Positions 4,277-57,659 of a stretch of 64,000 bases of DNA are shown here, in pieces. The notes beneath the pieces were generated by a model. That model saw only the letters and a list, made by a program, of their open reading frames with translations, was not told the origin of the DNA and did no database searches. The position numbers and the translations under genes are program-made. Numbering within the stretch: the first letter of the stretch is position 1; each line of letters opens with the position of its first letter. This DNA is from Lotus japonicus (taxonomy: Eukaryota; Streptophyta; Magnoliopsida; Fabales; Fabaceae), in contig NC_080046.1 of NCBI RefSeq assembly GCF_012489685.1, positions 43,983,176 to 44,047,175 of the forward strand, given 5' to 3'.

Positions 4277-6073
4277 CTATGGATTGGCTATGGCTACAAT
4301 AGTTTCAACCTTAGACCCGAATTTGGCTGCTTTAAGCTTAGCAATCAACCTTTCCAGCATACAAATCCGGTTTTTAAGATTAAATGCTTCACCTACTGTA
4401 CAAGAACTGACACCTTCTCCTTCCATATCATTAACACTATTTCTAACATAAAATCTGTCAGTGATCTTTGATTCATCAGCATTATCCCCAGAATTCCCTA
4501 CTTGACATGTTCCAAACTTGCAAGTAAAATCAGGAAGTGGGCCAAAAGATAATTCACATTTTACCTCCCTAGTTAAAGCTGGTGACATATGTTGTGAGCT
4601 GTTTTTGCTTATCAGACAACGATCATAGCCTTTCATTGCATCTCCTTCCTTGCCTGAATTCAATTGCTTCCACCAGTTATACCTAGAAGTAACCTTTGGC
4701 TGGGAGGAACATAATGCAGTGCACAAATTAATATTCATTATTGGTTGGCTATAACTCATCCAAGGATCCTTGTTACAAGGAGAAACCACACCAGGGATAT
4801 CCTGATCCATCTTGAATTGCATACCAACCCTATGTGGGTGGTATTGCTCCACACACCCCATACCAACTAGCTCAGAGACCCTCAAACTTCGACCAAAGGA
4901 TTGCAACTCATAATCAAAACAGGGGTTTTGACACATCCACATATCCTTTTCATTGTAAAGGTACAAGGGTGGAGAATTTTGGTATGGGCGCCACAGAACA
5001 CCATTTGTATTCCCAGCAGCATCCAAAATCAAATTCAAGTTGTTATTTTTCAGCATTTCCACATTGTGCCATTTAGCCATTATGGGTTGGCCTTGCCCAG
5101 ATGAACTTGCACATGGAATTGGCAGCAGTGCTGGAAATCTCTCCAAAGCCCATACTTGAACCAGCTGAAAAGGAGCCCATAGTGTGACACTCAAATTCAT
5201 TGTTGCAGAACTTCTCACACTGTTGCTCAGCAAACTCAAATCCCTATAAATGCTCGCTAAAACAGCAGGTGCAAGAGCTACTCGGGTCCCTTGAGCTAAA
5301 TGTATGGCAATAGAAAAGACGCTCTTCAAAATGGTTTCAAATGGATTTGCAGGAAATACAAACCTCGACAACCAACAGACCAGAAAGGCCTCGTGTTCCA
5401 CACTGCTTTCATTCTTCATAAAATGCAGCATCCATGGCTTATGAAGCATCATTTTGGCTGTAGAGTTATTAAACATTCTTCTTACCTCAATTAATTTTGC
5501 TTCTATTTCCTTATGCTCATTCGTCTCGAGAGGGCTAGAAACAGGAGCTCCTATAACAGAATAACCCCAACAAACCTTCAAATCTTCCAATGTGATGGTT
5601 GCTTCTCCCCAAGGGAAGATGAACGTTTTGGTCTTGGAACACCATCGCTGAGTAAGAGCATGAATCAACTCATCATTCCTGTTGAACTCATATGTAGAAG
5701 CTTGGATTGCATTGTCTATTCCAGCTTTTACCCACAAATGTTCATACTTGAGTTGCATCTTTTGGACCCATGTTTTCCACTCCTCTGGTGGCTTTTGCCA
5801 ACCATTGTATCTTACTTCCTGAATTGCCTCTGCATGGTTAGATGTAAAAGGAAGTGAAAAATCACAAAGTGACTCTTGGATGGCACAAGGTTTCAGAAAA
5901 TAAGCAATTCTAGTAGTTGGGTTTTGAGCTGAATATGGCTGTGAAATCATCAACTCTTGTCGAACATCAATAATTTCCTCCTCTGATTCCTCTTCTGATT
6001 CTGGAGTGCAAGAAAAATGAATGAGTTGATGCAAGTGAAGAGCTTCTTCAATTTCAGCTTGGATGAACAGTGG
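4277..6073 (-). CDS. Plant mobile domain (MAIN-like) protein, large 3' exon
   Basis: A 599-codon open stretch runs from a good splice acceptor (pyrimidine-rich, ending TAG, exon from 6073) to TAG at 4277-4279. The central part matches the plant mobile domain: a conserved WCSKTKTF segment followed by FPWGEATITLEDLKVCWG at about codons 140-175, then tryptophan-rich helices and the segment LWAPFQLVQVWALERFP. Proteins with this domain include MAIN/MAIL1 of Arabidopsis and are related to sequences carried by MULE and Ty3 elements. The ORF has no internal stop over 1.8 kb, so it is either active or a recent loss. In-frame ATG occurs only at 5950, so either that is the start, or an upstream exon not identified here supplies the N-terminus. 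A frame stop lies directly before the acceptor. Downstream of the domain the chain is polar and ends with a short leucine/lysine-rich helix. Confidence 0.8.
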   Translation of the reverse strand, partial: PLFIQAEIEEALHLHQLIHFSCTPESEEESEEEIIDVRQELMISQPYSAQNPTTRIAYFLKPCAIQESLCDFSLPFTSNHAEAIQEVRYNGWQKPPEEWKTWVQKMQLKYEHLWVKAGIDNAIQASTYEFNRNDELIHALTQRWCSKTKTFIFPWGEATITLEDLKVCWGYSVIGAPVSSPLETNEHKEIEAKLIEVRRMFNNSTAKMMLHKPWMLHFMKNESSVEHEAFLVCWLSRFVFPANPFETILKSVFSIAIHLAQGTRVALAPAVLASIYRDLSLLSNSVRSSATMNLSVTLWAPFQLVQVWALERFPALLPIPCASSSGQGQPIMAKWHNVEMLKNNNLNLILDAAGNTNGVLWRPYQNSPPLYLYNEKDMWMCQNPCFDYELQSFGRSLRVSELVGMGCVEQYHPHRVGMQFKMDQDIPGVVSPCNKDPWMSYSQPIMNINLCTALCSSQPKVTSRYNWWKQLNSGKEGDAMKGYDRCLISKNSSQHMSPALTREVKCELSFGPLPDFTCKFGTCQVGNSGDNADESKITDRFYVRNSVNDMEGEGVSSCTVGEAFNLKNRICMLERLIAKLKAAKFGSKVETIVAIANP

Positions 6074-7714: not shown

Positions 7715-8497
7715 GAATTTAATTTGGATGATGAGCGTCACAGAACGCAGGGAAGGAAATGGAAACGTTTTTGTAGTGAGGCGTGAGGAGTGAGGAGTGC
7801 AGTACTATTTTGTTTTGTTTGTATTATTATGACAGAATCAATGGAGCTAGCTAGCTAGCTGGCAATAGGTTTGTTTCACAAAAATGGGTCTTTCTTTCTT
7901 TCTTTCTTTCTCAAGGATTGGTTCACTATCCAGTATCCTCATCAGGTGAATGTAACCATCAAGTCTCCATCACCTCCTTCATGGCTCTTTCATGGGTACC
8001 ACTACCACACTATTTTTTATTCTTGTTTTTCAAGCTTTAACTTTATGGTGATCTATCTATAACTATCATAAAAGTGGGGTCATGACACATCTAGTTATTC
8101 ATGTATAACCGCTGCTGATGATGGTTGAGAGTTGAGACACAATGCATACAACATACATAATGCAAAACAAGTTGGATAAAGAAAACAAGGTACCCTTTTC
8201 CTTAGGCTTCAGAAGTGGTGTATTTTTTAACCTTTACATATTCCCAAAAAAAGAAATCCGCTAGCATGGATTTGGTTATGGTAGCTTGTACACCCCACTT
8301 AATTTGCTTCTTAGCTATGATTGTCATGATTTCCAGTTTTATGAAAGTAGTGAAGTACTACAGTCAAAAGTCATTGTCTGATAGAGTGAGTTTTGGATAT
8401 GCCAGCAATATGGCATTTCATTGCGTTTCGGTCTGTTTATAACTTCAATCTAATGAAATGACAGCAAACATCAACCTATCTTAGGCAATTCATTAAA
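7715..8497. other. Spacer; presumed 5' side of the WRC exon
   Basis: Contains a GCTAGC-type run near 7848-7860 and a CTTT microsatellite at about 7889-7911. No gene, TATA box or transposon ends were recognised with confidence. Confidence 0.4.
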
Positions 8498-9186
8498 GGC
8501 TTAAATAAGTTTTTAGTCACTAACCTTTACCATATGTTTGATATTGGTCCCTCATCAGAGTGAATGTGGGTTTTAGTCCCTAACCTTATTTTTCTCCATT
8601 TTCACACCGCTGGCTTTGTGTTTGTGAGTTTATCTCAACAAATCTCAAAATTAAAGGGAAATAGGTTGTGTTTTGTTTCTCAAAATTAAAATTACTTCAA
8701 TATGGTGGAGAATTTAGCAGAGATTTCAAGCATTTGCTCTATCTTCCTTGATTTTTCGTTTTCCTAGACATTGAATTTTATTTTATGAGAATTAGAGTTT
8801 ATTTTCTGGGTTTTTTTGAAGATGAGGGATGAAGATGGTGAAGAAGGATTAGAGTTAAAAAAATTTAGGACTAAAATTAAAGATTTGATAAGGGATTAAA
8901 GTTAAATAAATTAAGTTTTTTTTAAACAATTTCTTTTTTTTAATTAATTAGGTTTTTTTAAATATAAAATAAAAAAAATTCCACGTCAACTCATTAATCC
9001 CACGTGGCCATGTCACATGGGCCATCAGAGCTCCGGCGTTGACCTAGAGCTCCGGATGGACCAAAACCAAACATTTTGACAAAGGTTAGGGACTAAAGCC
9101 CACATTTACTCTGACGAGGGACCAATGCCAAACATATGGTAAAGGTTAGGGACCAAAAATTTATTTAAGTCTTAGCCTTCATTGAA
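8489..9186. mobile_element. Non-autonomous TIR element, probably MULE-type
   Basis: The ends at 8498 and 9177 form a long imperfect inverted repeat of about 85 bp. The left end reads GGCTTAAATAAGTTTTTAG, and the reverse complement of the right end reads GGCTAAGACTTAAATAAA; both continue through a shared CCTAACCTTTACCATATGTT block. Flanks TTCATTAAA (8489-8497) and TTCATTGAA (9178-9186) fit a 9-bp target duplication with one change, the size made by Mutator-like elements. No transposase is present. Confidence 0.75.
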
Positions 9187-9639
9187 TGACTAGAGTGGTA
9201 ATTCTGAACGTTCTGCTGCTTTTTTACACATTTAAGGGCATTTTTTGTTTTCAACTTTTTTTCTGTATGCTAAAATGGTGATAAATTACATGACATCCTA
9301 GTTGTCTTAACTTGCAACTGCTGACATGAGGTTTAATCCATTTAAATATTTTAAATTTCGTTTGTTAAACTCTGTAAAACTCGACTCACTTCTATAATGT
9401 TCACGTGTTAGAAGCAGAACTTTAGTTTTTACTCATCAACTAACCATAAACTTCTTCAAGGCAAGCATTTTTTCAGATGATATTTATGATACTTGAAAGT
9501 TCATCATTGATTGGGGTGAAAATGGGTTGGGCTGGGATAGGCTTTACGAGGCATAGGCCACGTCGCCACTAGAAGAATCAGAGAAGAACAATAGAATTAT
9601 GATATAAATAAATCTTTGTTCATAAATTCACTAATTGAT

Positions 9640-9705
9640 TGTGTAGCTCAACTGGTAATGTGTGTGTTTTACCACTATAAGGTCGATGACCGGGATTTTG
9701 TCCTA
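9640..9705 (+). repeat. tRNA-like head, probable decayed SINE
   Basis: A box A match (TAGCTCAACTGGTA) at 9644-9657 is followed after 23 bases by a degenerate box B (GGTCGATGACCGGG). The fold and 3' end of a real tRNA are missing, so this is a SINE or tRNA pseudogene. Confidence 0.55.
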
Positions 9706-10982
9706 GTTTTTAGGGTATTTTATTTGTTTCCTTTTTAGTCATTTTCTTTGTCTCATGTAGTGTTTTATACATTTTCATGCATTTTTTCTTTTATTTGTGC
9801 AATTGCATTAGTTTAGTAGTTTTGTTGTTTTATGGGGACCTTTTTCATATTTTAGCATAGTTTTGTGTTTTTTTGCATTTGTCTTTGTTCTGAGGTCTCT
9901 TGTGTCAATAAACCTTTGCTATTTTTGATATTTTCCTTGAGCTTTGATGAGAATAATCAGGTGAAACTGTAGAAGAAGGAAAGTCAAGATCTTGGTTTGG
10001 AGGTTTAAAGTTTGCATTGAAGTGAAGTTAAGTTGGAATTCTGAAGGATTTTGGGCGAGCAATGGTGCCTGGGCGCTCAGTACTAGCGCTCGAGCACCCA
10101 GCACACAGAAGCAAGAAAGCTGAAAAAAGTCAAGTCAGGCGCTCGAGAGCCCAACACTAGCGCTTGAACGCCCAGCACTCTGAAGCCAACATAAACTTTT
10201 CATGTAATTGGCGCTCAAGCATGCTTTCCCAGTGCTTGAGCGTCGAGACACGTATGAAAACTCTTTAAATAGGTGTTTACTTATTTTTTTCATATCTTTT
10301 GCATCATTACATACTTTGTAAACCTCAGAAGGAGAGGAACATCTAGGAGAGTGTGAGAGGGCTTCCAAGCTTGTAATCCAGGTTCTTAGCCATTGTCATG
10401 CTTGACTAATCTCTCTTCTATGACTTTGATTTTCTTGTAAGACTTTTCATATTTAAGTTATAATTTTAAGTTCTTTCCCACATGTTCTTCTTCTATCCTT
10501 GAATCCCATTTTCTGAATTTCAATCTAAGCTTGTGTGCATGCTTGCTTTATGTTTTTCTATAATCAGAACGAAAGTTTGTTATAGATTAGGGAACTGATT
10601 TGGGATTACCCTTTCTATATTTGCTACTAGGAATAGAGGAATGATTGAAGTTTGTTGGCCTGAACATTGTAATCTTTATGCTTCAAACAAATGTTTAAGT
10701 ACACAAGGAATTGAGCTTATCTTTTGGTTTGAAAGAATTATCTATGCGAGGCATCGATAGGTAGTTGTTTAGGCTATAACATCAAGGAGAGATTCATGAG
10801 TTCATATGCATAGGATGATGTGCTTAAATTGACTTGTTGAGCAAGAACCCAAAGTATCTTTCCTTTCTGAATTTACTTACTTTTTTCCTTATTACTACTT
10901 CGACATATGTTTATCTCAATAAAACAAACCTTCAAACTTAAGACTTAAACCGAATTTATTCACTCACAATCCATGTGGTTCG

Positions 10983-10985
<3 letters not shown>
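9706..10985. repeat. Noncoding retroelement-like region (LTR/UTR style) left of the integrated virus
   Basis: No ORF of note. Between 10050 and 10260 the motif GCGCTCGAGC and variants (GCGCTTGAACGCCCAGC, GCGCTCAAGC) recur in both orientations, a pattern seen in legume LTRs. The stretch ends CCATGTGGTTCGATA, wording often found next to retrotransposon junctions. Family and ends could not be fixed. Confidence 0.4.

Positions 10986-11018
<33 letters not shown>
10985..11018. repeat. (TA)n microsatellite, left insertion flank of the endogenous virus
   Basis: About 16 TA units run directly into the first base of the viral terminal repeat. The right end of the virus also abuts a TA tract, so this is the likely integration target. 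Confidence 0.9.
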
Positions 11019-11019
<1 letters not shown>

Positions 11020-11157
11020 TCTGATCTCTGCATTTCATCTCATTAATAATATGAACTTTATTTATATCTTCCGCAAACTCTGGTATCAGAGCCTTTTCCC
11101 GTGAGGGAAGGGTTCTGGGATCAGACTGGTTGTTATTGGATTTGATCTATTGTTTTT
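11017..11157 (+). repeat. Left copy of the 141-bp viral terminal redundancy
   Basis: Base-for-base identical, by eye, to 18249-18389. It contains the primer binding site at about 11081-11092. The left side is microsatellite and the right side continues into the viral leader. Confidence 0.93.
11080..11092 (+). promoter_or_regulatory. Primer binding site for minus-strand synthesis (initiator Met-tRNA type)
   Basis: TGGTATCAGAGC matches the consensus Met-tRNA complementary site of caulimovirids. It lies about 260 bp upstream of the first viral ATG. A second copy is at about 18312-18324 in the right redundancy. Confidence 0.85.
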
Positions 11158-11350
11158 CTAAAAATTTATTTCTGCTTACCGTTTTCATTAATCACCCCTG
11201 TTATTATCCTCAAGGCCTTAAGAACTTAGTGTGAGGTATCCCTGGAGTCTAGTGGTCCCCGGCAGTAAAGCCTGAGATAGGTAGTGAGACCGTTGGTTTA
11301 GCTAGATTGGGAAGAAGCATTATCACTCTTAGGATCTTTTAGATAATAAT

Positions 11351-14300
11351 ATGGCTAGATTAATTAAAACCTTAAGTGAAATGAGTTTAGGGAAAAATAA
11401 CAAGATTATGATTCCATCAACAACCACAGCTGGTTCTAGTAACCAAGATCAAGACTTCTCTAGGATAGCCCAACAAGAATTAGAAATAGCTTCAATAGAA
11501 AGAGCACTTCAAAATTGGTCAATCCCTATAGTCAAGAAAAAAGAAATTTATAAGCAACATACTTTATTCAATAGATCGGATGATTATATTTTTACCATAG
11601 AATGTTGTCAACATAGTTCTGATCATACAAGTACTATAAAATTATTAAATGAAGACATTCTAGATCAACATATTAAGAATGGTTTTAATTTTATTCATAT
11701 AGGCTTAATACAAGTAGCTGCAAAACCTAATTTTCGTTTAGGAATTAATTCCCAATAATTGTAATGTTACGAGATATGAGACTATTAAAACCTCAAGATT
11801 CACTAATCGCAGTCTTAGAGTCAAATCTTCATGATGGTCCTGTTTTCTTTAACTGCTATCCAAATTACGCCATGAATCTTCAAAATAGTTGGACTATGAA
11901 TGCTTTACAATTAGATTTATTAGCAAATAATGACATATTTGCAGAAGAAAGTGATCATTTCTCAATAATATATAGAATATATTATAAACTTTCAAAAATT
12001 AATTATAATTTTAAAGCCTTAAGATCATCACCAAAACAAGAAACCATAATGTTAGAAGCAAATTTAAAAAGATCTTCAGTACAGGTTCCTAAGAAGCTTA
12101 CTCATAAAGAAGTTATGAGTAAAATTCCTGAGGAATGGGTGTTCAAGAACTCATTACCTCAACCAAAGGTTCATAATACCCAAGTAAGAGAATTATTTCA
12201 AGAGGGAGCAAATCTGACTTTAAGAATGAATAGATCAAATTCATTTAGTATTAGAACCCCACAACAATTATACAAAGTAGACCTTCCAAGATCTTCTGTA
12301 TCATCAAAACTTAAAGGAATAGATACAACTTCTAGCCCTAGTATAGCCACGCCTATATATCAAGATGAAGAATCTAGTTCAAATAACTATTCTCCAACCC
12401 CATCTCAGATTAACATGTTAAGTAGGGAAAAATCTAGTTTTGAAATAGACAAGGATTTCATTAGACAAGATTTTATGGCTAATTACAACAAAGATAAAAG
12501 GTTATGGTACTTCAAAAAATTTAGTAAACAAGAAGTTGAAACTTTTAGAACCTTATATTATAAGGAAATGGAAGTTTCTGAAATAAACATCTATTTTTTT
12601 GACTGGTTCGATAATTATTGTACCAAAAATACTATTAACTATCCTTTCAAAAAGAAAATAAACCCGATCACAAAAATAGATACAGTTTGGAAAACTCCTG
12701 ATAATAATACCATTACTTCCGAATACCCTCCACACACTGGAGTAAAACTAGCAATAAAAGATGGTCAAGAAATTGAAGCGTCTCCTTACAAGGCAGAGGC
12801 TAATAAAATTCATCAACAATTAAATTTCACCAATACCATGTTAACAGTAATGTCAAAACAACTAGGAAGAATAGAGGTTCAAAAACCCGAACCCTCTGTT
12901 ATACACAAGGAATCTCCTTCATCATTTACCTTAGGAAACCCTTTGCAAACTCCCATTTTTAAAATTCCTCAATATACCAAGGAAGAGTTTAATTCCTTCA
13001 ATCTTTCAGGAAGCGTAGAAAAGTGAAAAGAAAAATTAACTAAACTCTCCTTAAATCATCTAGAAAATGATCTAAATATAAACAAAATTAGAAAATTTGG
13101 GCCAGAAAGTAATACAAAAGCTTACTATTCTAGACCCACATACCCTGACATGAGATTTGAAGAACGAAGAGAATTTATTCAAAATACTTTTAGTGGAACT
13201 AGCCTCGACGAATGGAATATCGATGGCTTCAGTGAACAAAATATATTAGATATTACTCATCAGATGATTATGGCCGCTACAGCCTATAGGGTTCATAACA
13301 ATACAGATAGAAATGCAGCCTAAATGATTACTCATGGTTTCACTGGTCAATTACGTGGCTGGTGGGATAATATCATGACTCCTGAAGATAAACTAACTAT
13401 ATTAAACAAGAAAAAAGAAAATGGAGAAGAGGATGTTGTAGCAACGTTAGTATATACCATTATACTTCATTTCATAGGAGACCCTAGTATATTTAGAGAA
13501 AGAGCTTCAAGCCAGCTCTCTAATCTCTATTGTCCTACCATGTCAGATTACAGATGGTATAAGGATACCTTCTTTTCAAAAGTAACCTTAAGAGAAGATG
13601 GCAACAACGCCTTCTGGAAAGAGCGCTTTATTGCCGGATTACCTAGATTAATGCAATCAAAAGTATTAAGTAATCTATCTCTTTTTAATCAAGGAAATCC
13701 AGTAAATTTTAATTCTCTATCACTTGGACAACTTCATAATACTGTAGTTTATACAGGAATACAAGTATGTACTGACTTTAAACTTCAAAATAAAATGCAA
13801 AAAGATATGCAAATTTCAAGAAAAGAAGTAGGTAGTTTCTGTGAGCAATACGGAGTAGAACCTTTACAGGCTCCAAGTTCAAAAGCTAGACGAATCATTA
13901 AATCTCAAACAAGGCCATCTCAAGGCTATAAAAAAAGAAAACTATTTCAAAAGAAATCATACGAACAAAGTCCTTCGACTCAAAAATCTCTAATTAAGAA
14001 AATTGTCAACCCAAAGAAAAAGAAGAGTGTATGTTGGAAATGTGGGAAGCCAGGTCATTATGCAAACAAATGTAAAACTCAACAGAAAATAAATGAGTTA
14101 GAACTAGATCAAAAAATCAAGGATAGCCTAATCAGTGTTCTTATTAATACTGAAGATCCTCAGTACTCTTCAGGATATGAATATGAAGGAGATGAAGATC
14201 AAGATGTAAATCTGGTCGAATATTCATCAGACTCTCATTCAGAGGAAGAAGAAGAAAAAGAATGTGTCAAAGATAGTTCAGGATTCTGTGACTGTGCAGG

Positions 14301-16670
14301 ATGCTTAGGACGAAGTGTTAATATGTTAACACAAGATCAAACTATGAGTCTAATTTCCATAATAGACAAAATGGAAGACTCTCCTTTAAGAGATGAGTTT
14401 TTACAACAATTAAATCTTCTAGTAAAAAAGGAAGAATCATTAAAGAAAGATATTAGTCCTCCCATAAATAGTATGAATGAAATCTTTAACAGATTCAGAC
14501 CGAAACCCACCATAACCTTGACATATCTTCAAGAAGAAGTAAAAATATTAAAAGAAGAGATCAATCAACTTAAGCAAAATGATCTTAACTTAGAATTCAG
14601 ATTAATGGAATTAGCTGGAATAGAAATTATCAAAACCCAAGAAACTCTAGCCAGTACTTCAGGAACGAAACAAACTCATAATAACAAAGAAGAAGAACCA
14701 GACGAGAGTTATCTTAATCTCCTTAGTTTAGTCATAACTCATAAATGGCATTCTGAGATAACCTTAGTCATTAATGATTTTCGAATCAATATAGTAGCCT
14801 TGATAGACAGTGGCGCTGATATTAACTGTATTCAAGAAGGATTAAATCCTACCCAGTTTTATGAAAAAACCAAAGAAGGAGTTAATAGTGCAAATGGATC
14901 AAAAATGAATATTCAATATAAGCTATCAAATGCCAAGATTTGTAAAGATCAAGTCTGTTTTAAAACTTCCTTTGTATTAGTCAAAAATATGACAGAGCAG
15001 GTCATTTTAGGAACACCCTTCATTTGTCTTTTATATCCTATCGATAAAATAGACGAAAAGGGAATAGTTACGCAAGTCTTAGGAAAGACTGTTACCTTTC
15101 CTTTTATAAAACCTCCACAAGTAAAAGAACTGCATTTATTAAAGGAAATCTCCACCTCTAGAATAAATATGATTTCTAGAAAAAAGAAACATATTAATTC
15201 TTTACAAAAAGAAATTAAATATTACAAAATATAAGAACAGCTCAAAAGATCTAATATCCAAAAAATTATTAAGAATTTTCAAGACCAAATAGAAAAAGAT
15301 TTATGTGATTTAAATCCCATGGCCTTTCATCATAGAAAGATACATACCATAGAATTACCTTATGTAGACGGGTTTAATGAGAAAGATATACCTACAAAAG
15401 CCCGGCCCATTCAAATGAACGAGCAATATTTAATGTATTGTAGAGAAGAAATAGGAGAGTATCTCAATAAAGGGCTAATTCGCCCCTCCAAATCCCCTTG
15501 GAGTTGTACGGGATTTTATGTCATGAATGCCTCCGAGTTAGAAAGAGGAGCTCCTAGATTTATAAACCCCTAAACAAAGTATTAAAATGGATAAGATATC
15601 CATTACCCAATAAAACTGATCTTATTAAAAGACCACATAAAGCAACAATATTCTCAAAATTTGATATGAAATCAGGATATTATCAAATTTCGATGAGGGA
15701 GGAAGACAGGTATAAAACTGCTTTTGTCGTCCCTTTTGGTCATTATGAGTGGAATGCCATGCCACAGGGTCTAAAGAATGCCCCTAGTGAATATCAAAAC
15801 ATCATGAATGATATATTTTATCCATATATGGATTTCACCATTGTATATTTAGATGATGTACTAGTATTCTCAAAAAGTATAGACCAACATATTCAACATG
15901 TAGAAAAATTCATAGAAATTATTAAAGAAAATGGATTGGTAGTTTCAGCAAAAAAGATGAAAATCTTTGAAACTAAAACAAGATTTTTAGGTTACGAAAT
16001 TCATCAGGGCCAAGTTACTCCGATACAAAGATCATTGGAATTTGCAAAAAACTTTCCAGATGAATTAAAAGAAAAAACTCAATTACAGAGATTTTTAGGA
16101 TGTGTTAATTATGTAGCAGATTTTATCCCAAATATAAGAATAATCTGTGCCCCCTTGTTCAAAAGACTTAGAAAAAACTCCCCACCTTGGACCAAAGAAA
16201 TGAGCCATAGTGTTAGGGAAGTTAAGAAATTAGTACAAAGCTTACCATGTTTAGGAATACCAGATCCAGAGGCCTCATTAGTCATAGAAACCGATGCCTC
16301 AGAGTTAGGATATGGTGGGAAGGTAAAACCCCAGTCTTCAAGAGAACAAGTTGTTAGATATCATTCAGGTATTTGACACCCAGCTCAACAAAAATATTCC
16401 ACAGTCAAAAAGGAAATTCTTTCAATAGTTTTATGTGTTCAAAAATTTCAAGATGATGTTTTTAATAAAAAGTTTTTGATAAAAACTGATTGTAAAGCAG
16501 CACCTTCAGTATTGCAAAAGGATGTTCAAAACTTAGTTTCAAAACATATCTTTGCTAGATGGCAATCATTACTTTCTTGTTTTGATTTTGAAATAACTCA
16601 TATTAAAGGAGACAATAACTCCCTTCCAGATTTCCTGACAAGAGAATTTTTACAGGGAAAACATGAGTGA
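11351..16670 (+). pseudogene. Viral ORF1: movement-coat-protease-RT-RNase H polyprotein, broken
   Basis: Starts at ATG 11351. The movement protein spans about 11351-12300, with the family-typical segment SNLHDGPVFFNCYPN. A coat region follows, with zinc knuckle CWKCGKPGHYANKC at about 14032-14073 after a lysine-rich stretch. The aspartic protease motif is ALIDSGADI at about 14797-14823. The reverse transcriptase has KFDMKSGYYQI near 15661 and the catalytic YLDDV at about 15846-15860. RNase H has IETDASELGYG near 16287, and ORF1 ends at TGA 16668. Breaks: a frame change at about 11755-11763; stops at 13024, 13321 and 15232; a frame change at about 15565-15573; and a stop at 16374. It cannot make a full polyprotein. 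In the living family this product would be cut by its own protease. Confidence 0.93.
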
Positions 16671-17736
16671 GAAACCAAAATCAAAAGATCAATATGGACC
16701 CCCACTGGGTTCGTCATCATCATCAAGTTCAAAGGCAATTGCAGTAACGCCTCTTAAGATTGCTGGGTCCTCAACACCAGCTACCCCTTCAAAATCTTCT
16801 CAAAAACTCACTACCTCCCAAATTGTCAAAACGCCTCCTCAAAAAATCTCGTTAGTCCCACTGACTAACAAATACACAGTATTAACTCAAAACTCTTCAA
16901 AATCCCCTGTCAAACCAGAACAAACCGAATATCTGGAAAAACCAGAAGGTTTGCCTTCCCTCATTATAGAAAAAGAATATTTCCATCTAAATCCAAGAGA
17001 GATAGCCACCCAGATATTTCCTCCTAACTTTCATTATGTCCAAGGACACCCTAAAAAGACCAGATTATTTTATGAATTCATTCTAGTCGATTCTGATTCT
17101 ATCGAAGTCACCCATACTCCAGATAAACAAGGAGAAATAGCTTTCTCCAAAATCAAAATTCTCAAAGTACTTTCAGCTCAAGACTGGAATGCTCCCCTTC
17201 ATTACTTTAAACAATTTTCCAGACAGTTTGATCCTCCTAGTTATAATTATTTTGATTATACGGATGCTTGGTATTACGCCCTGTATCTAAGACCATTTCA
17301 ACATTCCTGGTTCATCTGGTTCCAAAAGGGAATTTCTTTAAAATTTCCGCAGTGGTTTAAAGTCTGGTTCTGTCAATTAGGACTGGATGAATCTATCTTT
17401 CCTGAAGAAGTTAAACCATTATTCAAATACTTTGTTCAAAGAACCAATTTCATTATGGAAGATCAACACCTTATTTTCACAGCTTCTCAAGCCATATCAT
17501 GGATTACAGCTTGGGACTAGAAAACTGTTCAAATTTTTTAAGACACTGAGCTCTATCAACTTTATCGTATCATTAGGATAAAGTGGTGGGCAAAATTCAA
17601 TATTTCCTTAATTCAACAGACCAAGATTGAAGCATGGATAAGAACTTATCATCTTACTCAACAAAGCAAGAAACAGTTAACAACTACATCCATTCCTCAT
17701 CTCACTCAAGAAGCCTCATTTTTGCAAGAAAAATAA
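16663..17736 (+). pseudogene. Viral ORF2, function unknown, with two stops
   Basis: ATG at 16663 overlaps the last codons of ORF1, a reinitiation-type junction. The frame is open for 285 codons to TAG at 17518, then continues past a TAA at 17539 to TAA at 17734-17736. The N-terminal 60 residues are serine/threonine/proline-rich. The rest is aromatic, with many WF and YF pairs (SWFIWFQKG, PQWFKVWF). Florendoviruses carry a second ORF of unknown role here. No catalytic motif was recognised. Confidence 0.75.
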
Positions 17737-17742
17737 AAAATC

Positions 17743-17904
17743 ATGGCAGAGTTAGCATCAGCCAGCTCACCAGAAGAGTTCCAGAAAAGATTAGATATGG
17801 TATCTCAAAAGTCGAATTCAGATACTTCATCAGTTAACAGTCAAAATTACCTTCAAGAAAATGAAGATGACTGTTTAGGAATCAATTATCATCCGTTTAC
17901 CTGA
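17743..17904 (+). CDS. Possible small third viral ORF (53 codons)
   Basis: The frame runs from ATG at 17743, six bases after the ORF2 stop, to TGA at 17902-17904 without interruption. The product would be polar and acidic, rich in S, N, E and D, beginning MAELASASSPEEF. Its tight spacing after ORF2 suggests it is real, but at this length chance cannot be excluded. Confidence 0.4.
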   Translation: MAELASASSPEEFQKRLDMVSQKSNSDTSSVNSQNYLQENEDDCLGINYHPFT

Positions 17905-17999
17905 TAGGGAGATATGATTGCAAAAAGACAAAGAGGTCATCATCAAAGTTCTTCATCATGGCAGACAAAGAATCTGCTTTTATCATTATTAAAGTTCCT

Positions 18000-18230
18000 A
18001 CTGTTGTAACTATAGTTACTTTATGAAAACCGTAGTTACTTTTTGTATAACCCTAGTTACCTTTGCAAAAACTGGAGTTACTTTTCACAAGTAACCATGG
18101 TTATGGCTTGTATAAATAGGTATCTAGGAATTGAAGAAGGCATCGGGTTCTTTCCCTAGCTCTCTTCTCTCTCTCTCTCTCTCTATCTTATATATTTTGG
18201 TATGCTTGTAACTTTGATCTTTGAATAAGA
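18000..18230 (+). promoter_or_regulatory. Viral promoter region: repeated AGTTACTTT boxes, TATA box and poly(A)-like signal
   Basis: Five variants of TAGTTACTTT occur between 18008 and 18095, roughly every 20 bases, upstream of a strong TATA box (TATAAATAGG, 18111-18120). A CT-rich tract follows at about 18160-18184 and AATAAG at 18224. This matches the layout of a pregenomic RNA promoter followed by a terminator just before the terminal repeat. Confidence 0.7.
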
Positions 18231-18248
18231 AAAGCTTGTTTCAGTAAG

Positions 18249-18384
18249 TACTCTGATCTCTGCATTTCATCTCATTAATAATATGAACTTTATTTATATC
18301 TTCCGCAAACTCTGGTATCAGAGCCTTTTCCCGTGAGGGAAGGGTTCTGGGATCAGACTGGTTGTTATTGGATTTGATCTATTG

Positions 18385-18389
<5 letters not shown>
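18249..18389 (+). repeat. Right copy of the 141-bp viral terminal redundancy
   Basis: Identical to 11017-11157. Upstream it continues from the viral poly(A)-signal region; downstream it stops at a (TA)n tract beginning at 18390. Confidence 0.93.

Positions 18390-18422
<33 letters not shown>
18390..18422. repeat. (TA)n microsatellite between two viral insertions
   Basis: About 16 TA units separate the full-length viral insert from the second, divergent viral fragment. Confidence 0.9.
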
Positions 18423-18424
<2 letters not shown>

Positions 18425-19058
18425 TCCAAGAAAAATTCTATGGGTTCCTTGAGAAAACCCAGCAAAACATCTTCTGATGGCGATGATACTTACGGGTGAG
18501 GAAGGTTTGCTTTTTATGATGCTTCGCTCTTTTTCCTCCAAGCTTTCTTTCAAATCTTCCCAACCCTCTTCTTCTTCCATTGATCATCATCATCATCCCA
18601 ATCAATTATCCAAATCTGTCTTCAAAGAAGAAATTCATTTTGAAGATATCAATCAAGATCTTGACAACTGGGAAATTCCAAAAATTTCTCATGCTGAGAT
18701 CTACAAACCAAACGGATCCTTTTTCAAACGATCAGATTTCATTATCAAAACCGTTGAGCAAACCTACAAGCTCAGATCCGATGATGGTTCGCAAGAAATA
18801 AGATTTGATGGAGTTCATTACCTTGTATTGAACCCTGTAGATTAAGGAGATGGGAATGGAATCCTCCTTCATATCAAGGCCGTGAAGCTTGATATTTAGG
18901 AAGAGGACATCAAGGATGTTTTTATCTTCCAGACTAACAGTTAGATCTGGGAAGCAATTGAAAAAGATTGGTCCATTACTCAGGCTGGTTTCAACCGTTC
19001 CTAAGAGGGAGTCATGGAATTGATTATGTCTAACATCCCTAAGACAAAGGAGTACAAC

Positions 19059-19061
<3 letters not shown>
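18423..19061 (+). pseudogene. Fragment of a second, divergent caulimovirid (movement protein N-terminus)
   Basis: An ORF from ATG 18477 to TAA 18843 encodes 122 residues. Its centre, LDNWEIPKISHAEIYK followed by FKRSDFIIKTVE, aligns with the movement-protein start of the neighbouring virus, LQNWSIPIVKKKEIYK followed by FNRSDDYIFTIE. The shared pattern is NW-IP-EIYK-F-RSD. The two are related but clearly different at both protein and DNA level, so this is a different virus lineage. After 18845 the frame is broken by several stops. The fragment lies between TA tracts (18390-18422 and 19062-19092). Histidine-rich and serine-rich runs precede the conserved part. Confidence 0.75.

Positions 19062-19092
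<31 letters not shown>
19062..19092. repeat. (TA)n microsatellite, right flank of the second viral fragment
   Basis: About 15 TA units follow the end of the second viral fragment. Confidence 0.9.
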
Positions 19093-19095
<3 letters not shown>

Positions 19096-19154
19096 AATCA
19101 TACTTTTAGTTACTGTTCATGGCAATCTTTTTTCTGGTTCGATAACACTAGCAT

Positions 19155-19870
19155 GTGGGCTGGGCATTTGAACTTGAAAAAACTTATGATAGTGTCTCTT
19201 GGAAGTTTCTTCAAGAGTCAATGGAGTTGTTTGGGTTCCCTGCAAATTTGTTGAGCCTTATTATGTGCTGTGTGGGTGGATCTGAGTTATCTACTATGTG
19301 GAATGGTTCCTGTCTCCCAGGCTTTCATCCAGGTTGTGGGCTAAGACAAGGGGATTTGTTACCTCCTTACCTGTTTGTGTTGTGCATGGAGCGATTATCT
19401 TTGATGATTCACCAACTGGTGGACTCGGGTGATTGGAATCCAATCAGAATTTCACCCCAGGGTTCTCCTATTTCTCATCTCTTTTTGTAGATGACATTCT
19501 TCACTTTTGTCAGGCTTCCACAGCTCAGGTGCAACAGGTGGCAGACACTCTCCAGAAGTTATGTGCTTGTTTAGGCCTTAAGATTATCATGACTAAATCA
19601 AAGGCCATGGCTTTGAAAGGGGTTCGAGCCTAGATTAGAGATTATGTCAGAAGTATTACGTCTATCCCTTTCGTTAGGGACCTTGGAAGATATTTGAGTT
19701 TTACTCTCTCTAGTGGAAGAAAGGTGAAGGGGCATTTCAATTTCCTACTTGATGACATTGAAAAGAAGATGACTTCTTGGAAGACAAACCTCCTCAATAT
19801 AATAGGGAGAGTGTGTCTTGCTAAATCCGTAATCCCTTCAACACATATCATGCTTAAGGAATCAAATTGA
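19155..19870 (+). pseudogene. LINE reverse transcriptase fragment
   Basis: Translation in two frames gives LEKTYDSVSWKFL, CGLRQGDLLPPYLFVLCME and, after a frame change near 19485, VDDILHFCQAS (standing for the catalytic FADD box), then LGLKIIMTKSKAM and DLGRYLSF. These are the fingers-to-palm blocks of plant L1-type reverse transcriptase. The second catalytic block has V for A, the frame is broken, and both ends are missing. Confidence 0.9.
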
Positions 19871-24806: not shown

Positions 24807-26012
24807 TAACTAACGCTCTAAATCGTTGTGTTGAAATAGCAGTGCTCCCCGTTGGCAAATGTGAGTGAAAGAGAGAGGATTGTCTTATTATATTTATCAT
24901 ATTATTTAACAATCATATTATATTTTTTAAACAAAAATGGTAGGGCTTCAAGAGGAACATCTAGACATGTTCTAATTGCATACTCAGAATTTTCGGTAGG
25001 GAGGATTGTCTCCTCTTTTACCTTGTAGTAGAGTCTCGTAGAGGCTCACTCCAGTGGTATGTTGGAGCGTGATGAGATCTCCTTAAGTACGATGTGCTCC
25101 AACATGCGATTGCTATCGCAAGGAGATTCGGACCCACTCCGTTAGGGTGATGCTCAAACTCAAGTCTTGTTGGTCAGTTGTGTCAACTCATATCGGCATA
25201 AAACTTATTATATTCATTTCTTGTAAAAAGTTACTAGCATAATAAGTTGAGTATTTTCTCTCATACAAGTGGGTCAACTCTTCCGACATAAACTTTTCCC
25301 CACACAAGACCTTAACCACATATCTTGTTTAAGGACAATTAAGCATGTCTCGTTGAAGATTTTTTAAATTTACTTCTATTTTTAGAAAGCAAAACAATTG
25401 GATTACTTACACGCATAAAAGAAAAATGTATTTTATAAATGTTAAAATTAGTGGAAAAAATATAACCACCTTGAAAATTAGTGTTTTTTAAAATAATAGA
25501 TACCATGGATTTTTTATTTGATCCCAAATTATTTTTAAACTCTTACTATTACTCATGGTTAGTAAATATATATATCTTTTACCACTATTAAACAAATAGT
25601 ATAAAATAACATTTGTTTTACGGGATTAGTATAAAATAACATTAGACTTTGTACTTTTTATAAATAATTGAAATCTCACTTGTTCATTATAATCAATCTA
25701 GAAACTCATATTAATAATGAATTAAAGGATCTATTCTACTATAGAGGTGGTTATTGGGTAGACCAAAGTAAAAGTATTTTGATCCACCACTGCACTCAAA
25801 GGTATTTTGCACTGTAAATGATTTTTATTAGAGTAAATTACATTTCACCTATTATTGAAGTTTCTCTATATTACCCTAAACTCCAAACTTACTTAAATAT
25901 TACACTCTACTTCATTTTTTATTATATCAACCAAATTGATTTAGAAGAGGTTTCATTAGCCGTAGTTTCTTTGATTGATGCAGATGTAATGAACTCTTTG
26001 CCTTCTGACCAT
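24807..26012. other. AT-rich spacer
   Basis: No gene seen. The segment 25020-25290 has moderate complexity (GGAGCGTGATGAGATCTCC and similar) and may be an old repeat, but no ends were found. Confidence 0.35.
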
Positions 26013-36657: not shown

Positions 36658-37819
36658 GTTTTTTTTTTAACAGAACATCATTCATAAATTAAGAAGGCAC
36701 AGAGGCCAATACATCAGAGTTCAAAATAGCAGTTAAACCTGGAGGACCTTCCTCCACCCAAACCACATTCGATAGAGAGGAAGCATTCCGTGCCATAAAG
36801 TCCGCCGCAGAATTTCCTTCTCTACGAACAAAACTAAGGTCTACATAATCAAATAAATGCATTAAATTAAAACAATATGCAATAACAGTAAATAAAATAG
36901 ATGAGCCTCTTCTTTTCTTCCAAGCCCGATGAAGCAATAAACTATCAGTTTCAAATTGCACCCTCCTAAAGCCAAGTTGTGTTGCCAAAACCATTGCCCA
37001 CCTTAAGCTGAGAGCTTCTCCTAGAGTAGCCGAGAGAACCACAGTAGGAAACAAAGATGCAGCAGCCAAAATATCACCATTATAGTCCCTTGCTACACAC
37101 CCAAACCCTGCAATCTTGCTCTGATTTGTTGCAGCATCAATGTTCATCTTCACGCGACCCCGTGGTGGTCTTCTCCACCTGGTTGTGTGCGCTCGACGGT
37201 CGCCTGCATCCCTTGTTGTACCAGCTCCTGGATCAAAAGGGCACACTAGAGATTGGAAGCGCGAGACCACGTTCCTCCACCTGAATTCATAGCCCTCGAA
37301 CACCACCTTATTCCTGGCTTCCCAAATGGCACATAAAACTGTTTGAACCGCAGCCACCACCTCCTTATCACGGGTTTGCAGAACCTGCCCCATGAAAGCA
37401 TGGAATGAAACTCCGTCATCAATCCTCACTCCAAGTTCCGTCCCAAACCACGTCGCACGCACCACCTCACAACGCAGGAACAAGTGGTCCAGCGTCTCTT
37501 CCTCGACCCCACAAATGGCGCAACACGGGTCGATATCTAGTCCCCGCCTGCGAAGAGAGTGTCTAACTGGTACAGCTCCAACCCAGACTCTCCAAGCTAG
37601 TTGTTTACAGCGAGGAAACGCTGGAGATTTCCAAAACAAACACCACTGGGCTTCCGACAAAGTAGGTGCACTAGAAGATGAAGGAGAGCTCCTTGACACC
37701 TTTTCCTGTAAAAATTGATAACCTGATTTTGCGCAGTAAATTCCATCTTGTGCAGCAGCCCAAAACAAAGCATCTTCCATTTGATGAAGAGGAAGAGGGA
37801 CGGAAATAGGAATTTTCAA
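36658..37819 (-). mobile_element. 5'-truncated LINE with open C-terminal zinc-finger and RNase H region
   Basis: A frame without stops runs from at least 37819 to 36689; the first ATG is at 37780, giving 363 residues. The N-terminal half is the zf-RVT module of plant L1 elements: WKSPAFPRCKQLAWRVW, then CCAICGVEEETLDHLFLRC. The second half is an RNase H domain with all four acidic residues present: KMNIDAATNQ, GEALSLRWA, FETDSLLL and NSAADFMARN. A run of ten T's at 36661-36670 is the poly(A) tail seen from the other strand. Reverse transcriptase is absent, so this is a 5'-truncated copy. It is GC-richer than its surroundings, fitting a recent arrival or retained coding constraint. Confidence 0.85.
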
Positions 37820-38274: not shown

Positions 38275-39418
38275 CACACAATACAATTTCCCTTTTCAGA
38301 ACTCTCTAGAGTCTTTCAGGTTCCTCTCTCTCTCTCTCTCTTTGAATTTTTGTTGATTCTTGTTTTCTATGATCCTCTTTCAATTTTGTTTGTGATTTTT
38401 TCTGGGACTAAAATCTAATTTCGTTGAATATTGTGTACCAATTTGTATGAATTGTAGCTCAGGATCATCTTAGGAATAAAAATTATGTGTTAAGATTTGA
38501 TCCATGATTCACAACAAGGAAGCTTTTAGTGTGAGTTTGGTTTTCAGTTCACACGTTTTTCAAGAATGAAAAACCCAAATTTCAAATATATAAATGTGAA
38601 AGTAACTTCTAGGTTCCGTTTGATCTCAACTGGAATCTAAACACACCCTTAATTGGTGGATGACATGTTGTAATTAATTGTTTTTCATGTTTCAAGTCTA
38701 AAATTGACATGCTATATGGGTGTTTGAATGTTGGTGATCATCATAAATCTTAAATTTGGTCATGAAGATGGTTTTTTTCATTCTATATATATATATATAT
38801 ATTCCTCGTATGTTGTTTCTTTTTTGTGGGGTGTGATTGAATGTTTGCAATTGTGCACTTAGCTTAAGATCATCATATAGGAACGAATATTATGTGTTAA
38901 TCTTTGATTCATGATCCACAATGAGGAAGCTTGTAATTGTTGACAAGGGGATTGATCTGTTTTCATTAGGAAATTTTATTTTTGTCATGTTTGGGGTCTA
39001 AAGTTAACATGGTATATGGATGTTTGATCCTTGCAGTAATCAGCCTTCGGTCACTACAAGTTTTCAACAAGCAAAGTACATGGTTGAGTTGGAAATCCAG
39101 GTCCCAACCCCTTTTGATCCATTTGCTGAGGCTAAAGAAGCGGATGCCCCCGGAGCCAAGGAGTATGTGCATATACGCATTCAGCAAAGGAATGGAAAGA
39201 AAAGCTTGACCACAGTGCAAGGGCTGAAGAAGGAGTTCAGCTACGAGAAGATCCTCAAGGATCTTAAGAAGGAGTTTTGCTGCAACGGGAATGTTGTGCA
39301 GGATAAGGAGCTGGGGAAGATAATTCAGCTCCAAGGTGATCAGCGCAAGAAGGTGTCTCAGTTTCTGGTTCAGGCTGGCCTTGTCAGGAAAGAACAGATT
39401 AAGATTCATGGTTTTTGA
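38275..39418 (+). CDS. Translation initiation factor eIF1 (SUI1), complete
   Basis: Coding sequence lies in one exon, ATG 39080 to TGA 39416-39418, 112 residues, the family's usual size. An intron of about 700 bp splits the 5'UTR, with acceptor TTGCAG ending at 39036, as in many plant eIF1 genes. The SUI1 fold is marked by KEYVHIRIQQRNGKKSLTTV, KKEFSYEKILKDLKKEFCC, the basic KELGKIIQLQGDQRKKV loop and the conserved ending KEQIKIHGF. eIF1 binds the 40S subunit near the P site and enforces start-codon selection. The N-terminus reads MVELEIQVPTPFDPF, slightly different from the common MSDLDIQIPTAFDPF form. The given start 38275 is an estimated transcript start. Confidence 0.95.
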
Positions 39419-41329: not shown

Positions 41330-47823
<6,494 letters not shown>

Positions 47824-50040
47824 GTCTCAAAATTCTCAAATCCAAGTGTTATGACAAAAAAAAAACAGCAAAAAAGATGGGATTTTTTTTCACTTGAGAC
47901 TGATTCAGTCAAAACTGGATTGAACCCAGATGAGAATTCAAGGAGAGTGAGCACACTAACTAAAGATTTGGATCAGAAATCATTATGAAAATTTTGATGA
48001 AAAATTATCAAACAGTTGGAGTGCAGAGAATGTGAAGAGAGAGAGAAGAAGGGTTAGGTGATGATATGAAGAAATGTAAAAGCTACTATAAAGGTGTGTG
48101 TGAAAGAGTTGAAAAAAGCATAATTTTTATAGTGATATTGGTATGAACATTGATTGATTGATATATTGATAAATAGTATAAGAAAAAAAAGTATGGAAAT
48201 ATTTTGTATAATGAATGGTGATCCCTATTTTTGTGGGTAGGTGCTTTTCCGTGTATGTGATTAATAAAAAGAGGGAAGAAAACAAAAAGACATGAGAAGT
48301 CAACTATTTCCATGAATGTTATGAGTAAGGAGTTGAAGTCGTTGGTTTCACAAGAAGCCACCAAAGAGACAGACAGAGAAGAGAAGTGAAGCTTCCTTGA
48401 CAGAGGGAGGATGTATCCACAACACGTCATTCTCCTTCTTGACTCATTGAGTTAATTCATAATATTTTTTAATTGCATGTTTTTTAAGGAAATAAAAGAT
48501 TGTCATCCTTTTCCAAGTTGGACCTTCATTGTTAGTATTTGTTAATTGAGGAAAATAATTGCTTTTAATGCAGTGATCGGCAATTTAGCCTTGTTTCCTT
48601 TAGACGTGTTTAGGTTTATAAATCTTATCTCTTATATATTCTTTAATTAGTTTATTCTTAGATCATGTATGACTTTGAATTCACTATTATTTTTCAATAT
48701 TTTTCCCTTAATGTGAATTACACATCATACTTAACATTTAGATTATTAATATTTTTAACATGAAATGTTAGTCACAATGAAAGAGTCACATCCTCAATGG
48801 AAGTTACATGTCACCGCTTGCACTACCACTTATTTCAGGAGGGGGTGTGGATTTCTCCACATATCATATCATATTACTAATAAAGAATACCCTCAAAAGA
48901 CACACGATATTCCTTTCCCTAAAATCTTAAAATATTTTTATGATCCTTATCTCTTATATAGTTTTCAACTAGCTCATTTTTAAACAATATGGAACTCAGA
49001 ACTCACTTAATTTCGTAACTTTTATCAAATATGTAAAATTAACATTTGGGTGAGGAGCAGTGACGAAATGAAGTCTTAAAATAATAACCCCTAAATTTTC
49101 TTTTCTTTTCTTCATCAAAAAACTACATATTATAAGACATTAAGGAATAGACAATGAATCTCTCAATATGAGAGTCTCTAAGACTCTAACTCATACGACG
49201 GCGCCTCAAGCACTCTAACATAAGGGGTGGATAGCATAGCCCCAGCTCGAGCTAAATTTTCAACACATAGTTAACATTGCAAAGTAACCAAAGTAAAATC
49301 TCTTACCCCCAATTCATTGGAGTTCATAACTCATTTTTAGGTTAAAAGACTAGTTGGTCGTTATTTATAAGGGAGTGAATCACCAATTTAATTTAGAATT
49401 TGTTTGGGCAATAATATTCTCTCTTAATTTAGATTAACAAAATAGAAAAGTAAAAACTAGCTACTTCTATTAAACTTGTATTGGAATGCAACATTTGCTC
49501 ATTTCTTGTTTTAACGGGCTCTTATCTTATGCTTTGTTTTTATCTAATGAACACAGAGGGAAAGAAAATAAGGGTGTGAGTAAAATTGACATGAAAACAA
49601 TGTTCTAGCTTATTTGCTTCATAGTAGAAAACTCACATAAAAAAGTTTTCATCATTGAAGAGGTGTAAAAACTAACAAAACAAGAAAACTGAAGAACTTT
49701 TTAGTCTCCCAATGTTGCCCTCCTCTTCCCAATACATGTTCTCTAAATTTAATAGATCAAAAACCTTACACTTTGTTCATTGCAACTTTAATCACAAAAG
49801 GGTATAAAGGTAATGCAATATTACATTATTTTTCTTTTTCTCGATCACTTTCTCTTTTTTTTTCCCAATCAAAAAACTAAAATCCACCTTATTTTTTAGT
49901 ATTTGTTTTCTTGCCTTGATTTCATTCTATCATATAGTATTGTTTTTCTTCCACTTATTTTCACTCTTACATTCAAATATAGTGTTCAAGTTTCGCCACT
50001 TCAAGTTTCAATGATGTTTTGTACTAGTCACTAAATTATA
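47824..50040. other. CDPK upstream region and AT-rich spacer
   Basis: The CDPK 5'UTR and promoter lie just above 47823, with A-rich and GAGAGAGAGA stretches. Beyond about 48450 the DNA is AT-rich without recognisable genes or transposon ends. Confidence 0.4.
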
Positions 50041-52452: not shown

Positions 52453-52769
52453 AATCGTATAAGTATTATTTGTTCTTATTTACATATATCATATATGCTA
52501 GCCACTTCTCAATAATTTTTGACATATTGGTCTCAATAAATAAAAATAAATGAGCTTTTCCTTTTCTCCCTTTTCTTGAATGAAACTATGACACGAAAGT
52601 TATCTATTTTTATTTTATTTTATTAATTAAAAAACAATTGAAATTTGATTGAAAAAGTCATCAATATCATTAGGCCACTAGGATTGGGATAATAGTGAGT
52701 TTGTATGAAGTCAAACCTCATCAAATTTGACCAATTTAAAACTGTAGTTATAGAAAATGAGATGACAGC

Positions 52770-57084: not shown

Positions 57085-57615
57085 ATTCAGGGCAACAAAA
57101 CAGCAGAAAATGGTAGAATTAAAATTTAAAACTGTATTAAACTAGCAATCTAAAAATTATGAAACTTTCACAGATATACGGAATTTAAGTTAGCTTTCAA
57201 ATAAAATTGGTTTCACCCGATTTGGACTCATATCCAAGGAGTTATGCCCAAAACAATACGAACTGTCCAGCTTACTCGGCAGCAGAAAAAGGGGTGAACT
57301 AAAATTAAAACCTGTATTGATATAGCAATCCAAAATTTATGAAACTTTTAATGATTGCAGCCCTTTAAGTTAGCGTTCAAATAAAATTAGTTTCACACCA
57401 TTTGGACTCATATCCAAGGAGTTATGCCCAAAACATTACGAACTGTCCAGCTTACTCGGCAGCAGAAAAGGGATGAGATAAAATTGCAAACTGTATTAAA
57501 CCAGCAGTCCAAAAATTATGAAACTTTGACAGATTGAAGCCCTTTAAGTTAGCTTTCAAATAAAATTGGTTTCACCCGTTTTGGACTCATAATCAAGGAG
57601 TTATGCCCAAAACAG
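57085..57615. repeat. Three-copy 180-bp tandem repeat inside the LTR-like element
   Basis: GGAGTTATGCCCAAAACA-type sequence recurs at about 57237, 57417 and 57596. Each unit also contains ACTGTATTAAAC-like, AATTATGAAACTTT and TTTCACCC-TTTGGACTCAT segments. Confidence 0.9.
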
Positions 57616-57659
57616 TACAAAGTAGCAAAAAACAACGTCACTTGGCGCTGGAGGGACAG

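What the first reader, a model, noticed from the sequence alone, without database searches (positions are those of the whole stretch)
11017..18389. Near-complete florendovirus-like endogenous pararetrovirus with identical 141-bp terminal redundancy
The identical segments at 11017-11157 and 18249-18389 are offset by exactly 7,232 bp, which gives the length of the ancestral circular genome. Because both copies were the same at insertion, their identity suggests a fairly recent integration, yet the coding region already has several stops. This may be an undescribed virus species in this host.
Basis: partly seen in the sequence, partly recalled or inferred. Interest (0 to 1): 0.9.

Follow-up and report, generated by a model that had tools for sequence, protein, structure and literature searches.

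The report
Broken florendovirus copy inside TA repeats
A plant chromosome, likely from a legume related to Lotus, carries a full-length but broken copy of a florendovirus-like DNA virus between two TA-repeat tracts, where it was likely captured as filler when the tract broke; this is one more example of a well-known kind of viral fossil.

Summary
In detail: 11017-11157 and 18249-18389 are identical over 141 bp, 7,232 bp apart. The element is a permuted caulimovirid genome, 1.02 units long: movement protein, coat with zinc knuckle, aspartic protease, reverse transcriptase, RNase H, then ORF2 in another frame. The tRNA-Met primer site lies inside the repeat, no integrase was found, and the repeat does not run TG...CA, so it is no LTR retrotransposon. 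ORF2, reported in print as florendovirus-specific, is 84% identical to a Lotus japonicus protein; the reverse transcriptase is 91% identical to an unnamed record. Both ends meet (TA)n tracts, the published florendovirus signature. Up to seven in-frame stops and two frame steps break the genes; the identical repeats limit change since insertion to about 1.1% per copy, so the lesion count is mildly high (P 0.009-0.049), but amino-acid changes show no excess. Whether the virus species is undescribed cannot be told: Lotus japonicus A virus is in print, its sequence was out of reach. Real and well read, but ordinary in kind.

The parts
10988..11018 (.). Left (TA)n tract, 31 bp
11017..11157 (+). Left copy of the 141-bp terminal redundancy
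   Evidence: identical to 18249-18389
11081..11092 (+). tRNA-Met primer binding motif TGGTATCAGAGC, left copy (motif name recalled; PMC4241990 uses the tRNA-Met consensus as genome start)
   Evidence: only two exact matches in the window, 11081 and 18313
11333..11758 (+). ORF1 piece: movement protein, first part
   Evidence: PF01107 profile 10-94, E 0.0011, below the family cut-off
11749..13026 (+). ORF1 piece: movement protein, second part, and DUF7588; frame step against the previous piece
   Evidence: PF01107 profile 96-177, E 1e-9; PF24496 E 1.6e-20
13027..13323 (+). ORF1 piece: first half of DUF7746, cut by a stop
   Evidence: PF24925 profile 1-45, E 1e-13
13324..15234 (+). ORF1 piece: second half of DUF7746, coat domain, zinc knuckle, aspartic protease
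   Evidence: PF24925, PF22909 (2.6e-9), PF00098 (4e-5), PF00077 (5.3e-7)
15235..15573 (+). ORF1 piece: start of the reverse transcriptase region
   Evidence: aligned over residues 1-110 to RT-bearing relatives, best 62-65%
15558..16376 (+). ORF1 piece: reverse transcriptase and start of RNase H; frame step against the previous piece, ends in a stop inside RNase H
   Evidence: PF00078 E 1.1e-34; 91% identical to P0001
16377..16670 (+). ORF1 piece: rest of RNase H
   Evidence: PF17917 E 3.1e-11; 98% identical to P0001
16663..17904 (+). ORF2, interrupted by three in-frame stops
   Evidence: 31 relatives, best Lotus japonicus P0121 84%; later pieces 80% and 82% to P0121; stops
18013..18084 (+). 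21-bp direct repeats, 3.5 copies, upstream of a TATA-like motif (predicted promoter region)
   Evidence: TATAAATA at 18111 and AATAAG at 18224 read
18249..18389 (+). Right copy of the terminal redundancy, primer motif at 18313-18324
18389..18422 (.). Middle (TA)n tract, 34 bp
18423..19060 (.). Fragment of a second, different virus: movement-protein N part on + (18618-18758) and movement-protein core on - (19061-18819)
   Evidence: 38% and 35% identical to the element's own parts; - piece PF01107 E 5e-14, + piece no Pfam match
19061..19093 (.). Right (TA)n tract, 33 bp

Best explanation
The stretch 11017-18389 is a full-length but broken endogenous copy of a florendovirus-like plant pararetrovirus that was likely captured as filler DNA during repair of a break in a TA dinucleotide tract. 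Shown: the domain order, the 141-bp terminal redundancy that contains the primer site, the TA tracts at both edges with two bases (left) and one base (right) of possible overlap, and the stops and frame steps. Inferred: the captured molecule was replicating viral DNA whose two ends overlapped around the start point of minus-strand synthesis; host end joining, not a viral integrase, sealed it in; a fragment of a second virus entered the same TA array in the same or another event; the genes decayed mostly afterwards.
For: Identical repeats 7,232 bp apart; caulimovirid domains in florendovirus order and no integrase; primer motif inside the repeat; ORF2 in another frame with 31 relatives, the 12 with a named organism all legume; RT profile closer to a caulimovirus enzyme (402 bits) than to Ty3 (293 bits); RT paired with P0001 at 100/99 inside a 12-row clade whose four named rows are Cajanus or Mucuna; the three TA tracts above 30 bp in the window all border viral DNA; TA bias, 7.2-8.5 kb genomes and filler-DNA model in PMC4241990, junctions at the intergenic region and discontinuities and 93% AT-repeat flanks in rice (PMC526188).
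Against: No tree row carries a published florendovirus label, and three other legume-named rows (Cajanus, Trifolium, Mucuna) sit in a separate clade. The redundancy stretches both sides of the primer site, which simple strand displacement at one discontinuity does not predict. Seven stops with no difference between the repeats is mildly unexpected (P 0.009-0.049). No empty site and no sibling copies were seen, as the own-genome search did not complete.
Confidence: 0.88

Rival explanations
1. The insert is a trimmed piece of a longer head-to-tail viral concatemer or a later recombination product, and the overlap at the primer site is accidental.
For: Multimers and a 1.2-mer are reported for florendoviruses and concatemers are a proposed source of arrays.
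Against: Only 1.02 units are present and the overlap contains the primer motif; by arithmetic 130 of 7,232 placements of a 141-bp overlap would (1.8%), one locus, noted after the fact.
Confidence: 0.25
2. The captured molecule was already defective, copied in trans from an older decayed copy, so that the lesions are older than the insertion.
For: Seven stops imply 1.8-3.6% change and 3.8-6.7 repeat differences, none seen. Non-autonomous pararetroviruses are proposed in grasses (PMC5491270, passages).
Against: No excess of amino-acid change in the window copy: 10 against 7 in 353 RT-RNase H positions, 9 against 22 in 404 ORF2 positions, 40 undecided. Gene conversion or sequence polishing could also keep the repeats alike.
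Confidence: 0.15
3. A Ty3-type LTR retrotransposon with short LTRs.
For: Related RT and RNase H, direct terminal repeats.
Against: Movement protein and caulimovirid coat domains, no integrase in 11 + strand pieces inside the element and one across its right edge, repeat begins TACT and ends TTTT, primer motif inside instead of after the repeat, no target duplication that can be told from the TA tract.
Confidence: 0.01
4. A caulimovirid of another genus, such as a petuvirus-like one.
For: No labelled genus references were available for the tree.
Against: ORF2 relatives, including Cajanus and Arachis proteins that join ORF2-like sequence to caulimovirid RT or RNase H domains (P0131, P0143, P0144); two reports call ORF2 florendovirus-specific or without caulimovirid homologues.
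Confidence: 0.07

Closest known systems
Lotus japonicus florendoviruses, including Lotus japonicus A virus (PMC4241990; 77 and 11 identical RT copies listed in PMC9794742)
   Same: Two-ORF layout, size range, likely close host; best ORF2 relative is a Lotus japonicus protein, 84%
Florendovirus insertions in TA tracts of grape, citrus, rice and others (PMC4241990)
   Same: TA-flanked insertion without integrase; longer than unit length loci are known
   Different: Only a 141-bp overlap, placed around the primer site; next to it a second, different virus in the same array
[quoted passage not shown]
   Same: AT-repeat flanks; junctions gathered at the intergenic region and discontinuities
   Different: Another genus-level group by the paper's account; those are mostly segments
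Ty3 LTR retrotransposons
   Same: Related RT and RNase H
   Different: No integrase found, no LTR-type ends, primer motif inside the repeat, movement protein present

Membership tests
Florendovirus (proposed genus, Caulimoviridae) | Genome of 7.2-8.5 kb | tested here: met
   7,232 bp from the repeat offset (range)
Florendovirus (proposed genus, Caulimoviridae) | ORF1 with MP, CP plus zinc finger, AP, RT, RNase H in this order | tested here: met
   Pfam order in the broken pieces; the first MP piece is below the family cut-off
Florendovirus (proposed genus, Caulimoviridae) | ORF2 in another frame, protein specific to the group | tested here: met
   Frame differs; 31 relatives, 12 named, all legume; specificity taken
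Florendovirus (proposed genus, Caulimoviridae) | RT groups with published florendoviruses | tested here: inconclusive
   Groups with legume sequences, away from CaMV and Ty3, but no row is a labelled florendovirus
Florendovirus (proposed genus, Caulimoviridae) | Frequent location in TA tracts (a bias, not strictly defining) | tested here: met
   TA tracts at both ends
Caulimoviridae | tRNA-Met primer site at the genome start, in the non-coding region | tested here: met
   TGGTATCAGAGC at 11081 and 18313; the motif's name is recalled, its use as start is
Lotus japonicus A virus (species) | At least 80% nucleotide identity in RT-RNase H | not testable with these tools
LTR retrotransposon (Ty3 type) | Integrase | tested here: not met
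   None at E 1 or better in 11 + strand pieces inside and one across the right edge
LTR retrotransposon (Ty3 type) | TG...CA repeat ends with the primer site just after the left repeat | tested here: not met
   Ends TACT...TTTT, primer motif inside the repeat

The most novel reading that the evidence does not exclude
One TA array captured two different viruses, and the main copy came from a molecule that was already defective and whose two ends overlapped evenly across the minus-strand start: a trace of helper-dependent re-amplification of decayed endogenous florendoviruses, with the strand discontinuity marking the point of integration.
Probability: 0.08. Interest if true: 0.5.

Novelty: new member of a known kind. 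Interest (0 to 1): 0.22.

Why it matters
It is a clean example of how plant DNA viruses without an integrase enter chromosomes: a full circle, a short overlap at the replication start, TA tracts at each edge, and a second virus in the same array. With sibling copies from the host genome it could test whether viral ends gather at the minus-strand discontinuity and whether broken copies are still copied in trans. On its own it adds one locus to a large known class.

Tried and rejected
LTR retrotransposon: rejected on repeat ends, primer motif position, missing integrase and RT affinity. Viral contig collection: a scan with the RT alignment gave 16 pattern matches, none confirmed by tblastn. Further copies in the window: blastn with 30 overlapping pieces gave only a 26-bp match near 25354-25378 besides the pieces' own overhang past the element, and tblastn of eight protein pieces found only the second fragment. 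Further copies in the own genome: seven identical requests, none answered. Defect older than insertion: suggested, weakened, kept as a rival. Leader folding: not clearly more stable than shuffles (z -1.16, 28 of 200 as good), so no claim on leader structure. (bacterial promoter and terminator patterns) is not informative for a plant sequence. A LINE on the left of the TA tract was looked for by eye in + strand pieces of 25 residues or more from 9600 to 10985; none was recognised. Host by gene: the plant mobile domain gene 4280-6073 gave Lotus japonicus at 73% and 62% as its two best of 786 hits, 120 listed; the host is likely a legume near Lotus but is not identified.

Full report
Observation. 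The segments 11017-11157 and 18249-18389 are identical over 141 bp with an offset of 7,232 bp, and the exact match stops at both edges. The first two bases and the last base may also belong to the flanking TA tracts.

Anatomy. Stop-to-stop pieces on the + strand match Pfam in this order: movement protein in two pieces (E 0.0011, below the family cut-off, and 1e-9), DUF7588 (1.6e-20), DUF7746 split by a stop (profile 1-45 and 47-85), caulimovirus coat domain (2.6e-9), CCHC knuckle (4e-5), retropepsin (5.3e-7), reverse transcriptase (1.1e-34), RNase H (3.1e-11). No integrase appeared at E 1 in 11 + strand pieces inside the element and one across its right edge. ORF2 (16663-17904) overlaps the end of ORF1 in another frame and has no Pfam match. 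Upstream of the right repeat stand 21-bp repeats (18013-18084), TATAAATA at 18111 and AATAAG at 18224 (read; promoter and poly(A) roles are predictions). The primer motif TGGTATCAGAGC occurs in the window only at 11081 and 18313, near the centre of each repeat copy, with 64 bp before it and 65 bp after it. This centring is a single-locus observation made after the fact.

Relatives. The RT piece has 992 relatives at E 0.001, 120 of them listed. The best, P0001 (source 'lgn', no organism), is 91% identical over 260 aligned positions with a three-residue gap and 98% in RNase H; P0002 and P0003 follow at 75%. Organisms named in the list are plants (among them Cajanus, Mucuna, Cucumis, Vitis, Helianthus, Solanum, Trifolium, Prunus), save one labelled Corynebacterium. 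A profile of 23 sequences (window and 22 of the 120) scores the cauliflower mosaic virus enzyme 402 bits and Ty3 293 bits. A tree of 53 rows (window, 50 hand-chosen of the 120, CaMV, Ty3) pairs the window with P0001 (100/99) inside a 12-row clade (100/98) whose four named rows are Cajanus or Mucuna; CaMV and Ty3 fall outside on long branches, and three other legume-named rows sit in a separate clade. No row bears a published florendovirus label, so the genus rests on layout and ORF2 more than on the tree. ORF2 has 31 relatives; the best is a Lotus japonicus protein (P0121, 84%), and the 12 with a named organism are all legume (Lotus, Cajanus, Trifolium, Arachis, Mucuna).

Literature. Geering et al. 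2014 (PMC4241990; outline, passages and sections 6, 10 and 24 seen) give genomes of 7.2-8.5 kb, two ORFs, an ORF2 that appears florendovirus-specific, a TA-tract bias, an 80% nucleotide species threshold, longer than unit length loci, and Lotus japonicus A virus. The 2023 review (PMC10377300; passages and section 12) repeats that ORF2 lacks homology to caulimovirid proteins and that break repair is the leading but unproven model. De Tomas and Vicient 2022 (PMC9794742; passages and section 9) list 77 and 11 identical Florendovirus-01 RT copies in Lotus japonicus, so recent insertions in Lotus kin are expected. PMC526188 (passages) reports AT repeats at 93% of rice element ends and junctions at the intergenic region and discontinuities. 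PMC13308828 (passages) still calls Florendovirus a proposed genus. 'Lotus japonicus A virus' occurs in 2 papers of the library.

Host. No call names it. The plant mobile domain gene at 4280-6073 is closest to Lotus japonicus proteins (73%, 62%), then to other legumes. A legume near Lotus is likely; the modest identity argues against, but does not exclude, L. japonicus itself.

Integration site. Of six TA tracts of 10 bp or more in the window, the three above 30 bp (10988-11018, 18389-18422, 19061-19093) all border viral DNA. Capture as filler DNA during break repair is the published model; here it is inferred, not shown.

Second virus. Between the second and third TA tracts (18423-19060) lie two movement-protein parts, 38% (18618-18758, +) and 35% (19061-18819, -) identical to the element's own; the - piece matches PF01107 at 5e-14, the + piece has no Pfam match. 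This is a rearranged fragment of a different caulimovirid whose genus was not determined.

Lesions and age. In the standing frames there are seven in-frame stops (13024, 13321, 15232, 16374 in ORF1; 17518, 17539, 17734 in ORF2) and two frame steps near 11750 and 15560. Relatives read on across 15560 and 16374 and upstream of 15235; 13321 cuts DUF7746 and the step near 11750 cuts the movement-protein domain. For 13024 no relative was compared, and a natural split of ORF1 after the movement protein is known in Glycine max virus, so that stop may be natural. No difference in 282 repeat positions bounds change since insertion at 1.06% per copy (95%), under about 1.8 million years at 6e-9 per site per year (rate recalled). 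Seven stops would imply 1.8-3.6% change and 3.8-6.7 repeat differences; the chance that all seven events fall in coding sites is 0.009-0.049 over four models. Against a strong reading, the window copy has no excess of its own amino-acid changes: 10 against 7 in 353 RT-RNase H positions, 9 against 22 in 404 ORF2 positions, 40 undecided. Decay after a fairly recent insertion stays the default; a molecule already defective when captured, gene conversion or polishing of the repeats stay open.

Verdict. The species claim cannot be tested here. It is a new member of a known kind; the compound second capture and the repeat's place around the primer site are its unusual local features.

Noticed in passing
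18423-19060: Fragment of a second caulimovirid in the same TA array, its two movement-protein parts facing each other.
   Followed up: partly
11017-11157: The repeat is centred on the primer motif within a base (64 bp before, 65 after), and the left end lies about 20 bp past an AATAAG motif in the right copy.
   Followed up: partly
4277-6073 (-): Intact plant mobile domain gene, closest to Lotus japonicus proteins at 73% and 62%.
   Followed up: partly
19152-19630 (+) and 36689-37819 (-): Remains of LINE-type reverse transcriptase elements (LINE label is my reading of the domains).
   Followed up: no
8496-9173: Inverted repeat with 92-bp arms, 90% complementary, 494 bp apart, like a small DNA transposon.
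   Followed up: no
54124-55417 and 57101-57618: Tandem arrays of a 466-bp unit (2.8 copies) and a 180-bp unit (2.9 copies).
   Followed up: no
46969-47826 (-), 39008-39418 (+), 52761-53243 (+): Host gene pieces: protein kinase, SUI1 initiation factor, RRM protein.
   Followed up: no
protein P0065: An RT labelled Corynebacterium sp. MC-10 groups with a Solanum verrucosum row in the tree, likely plant contamination of a bacterial assembly.
   Followed up: no
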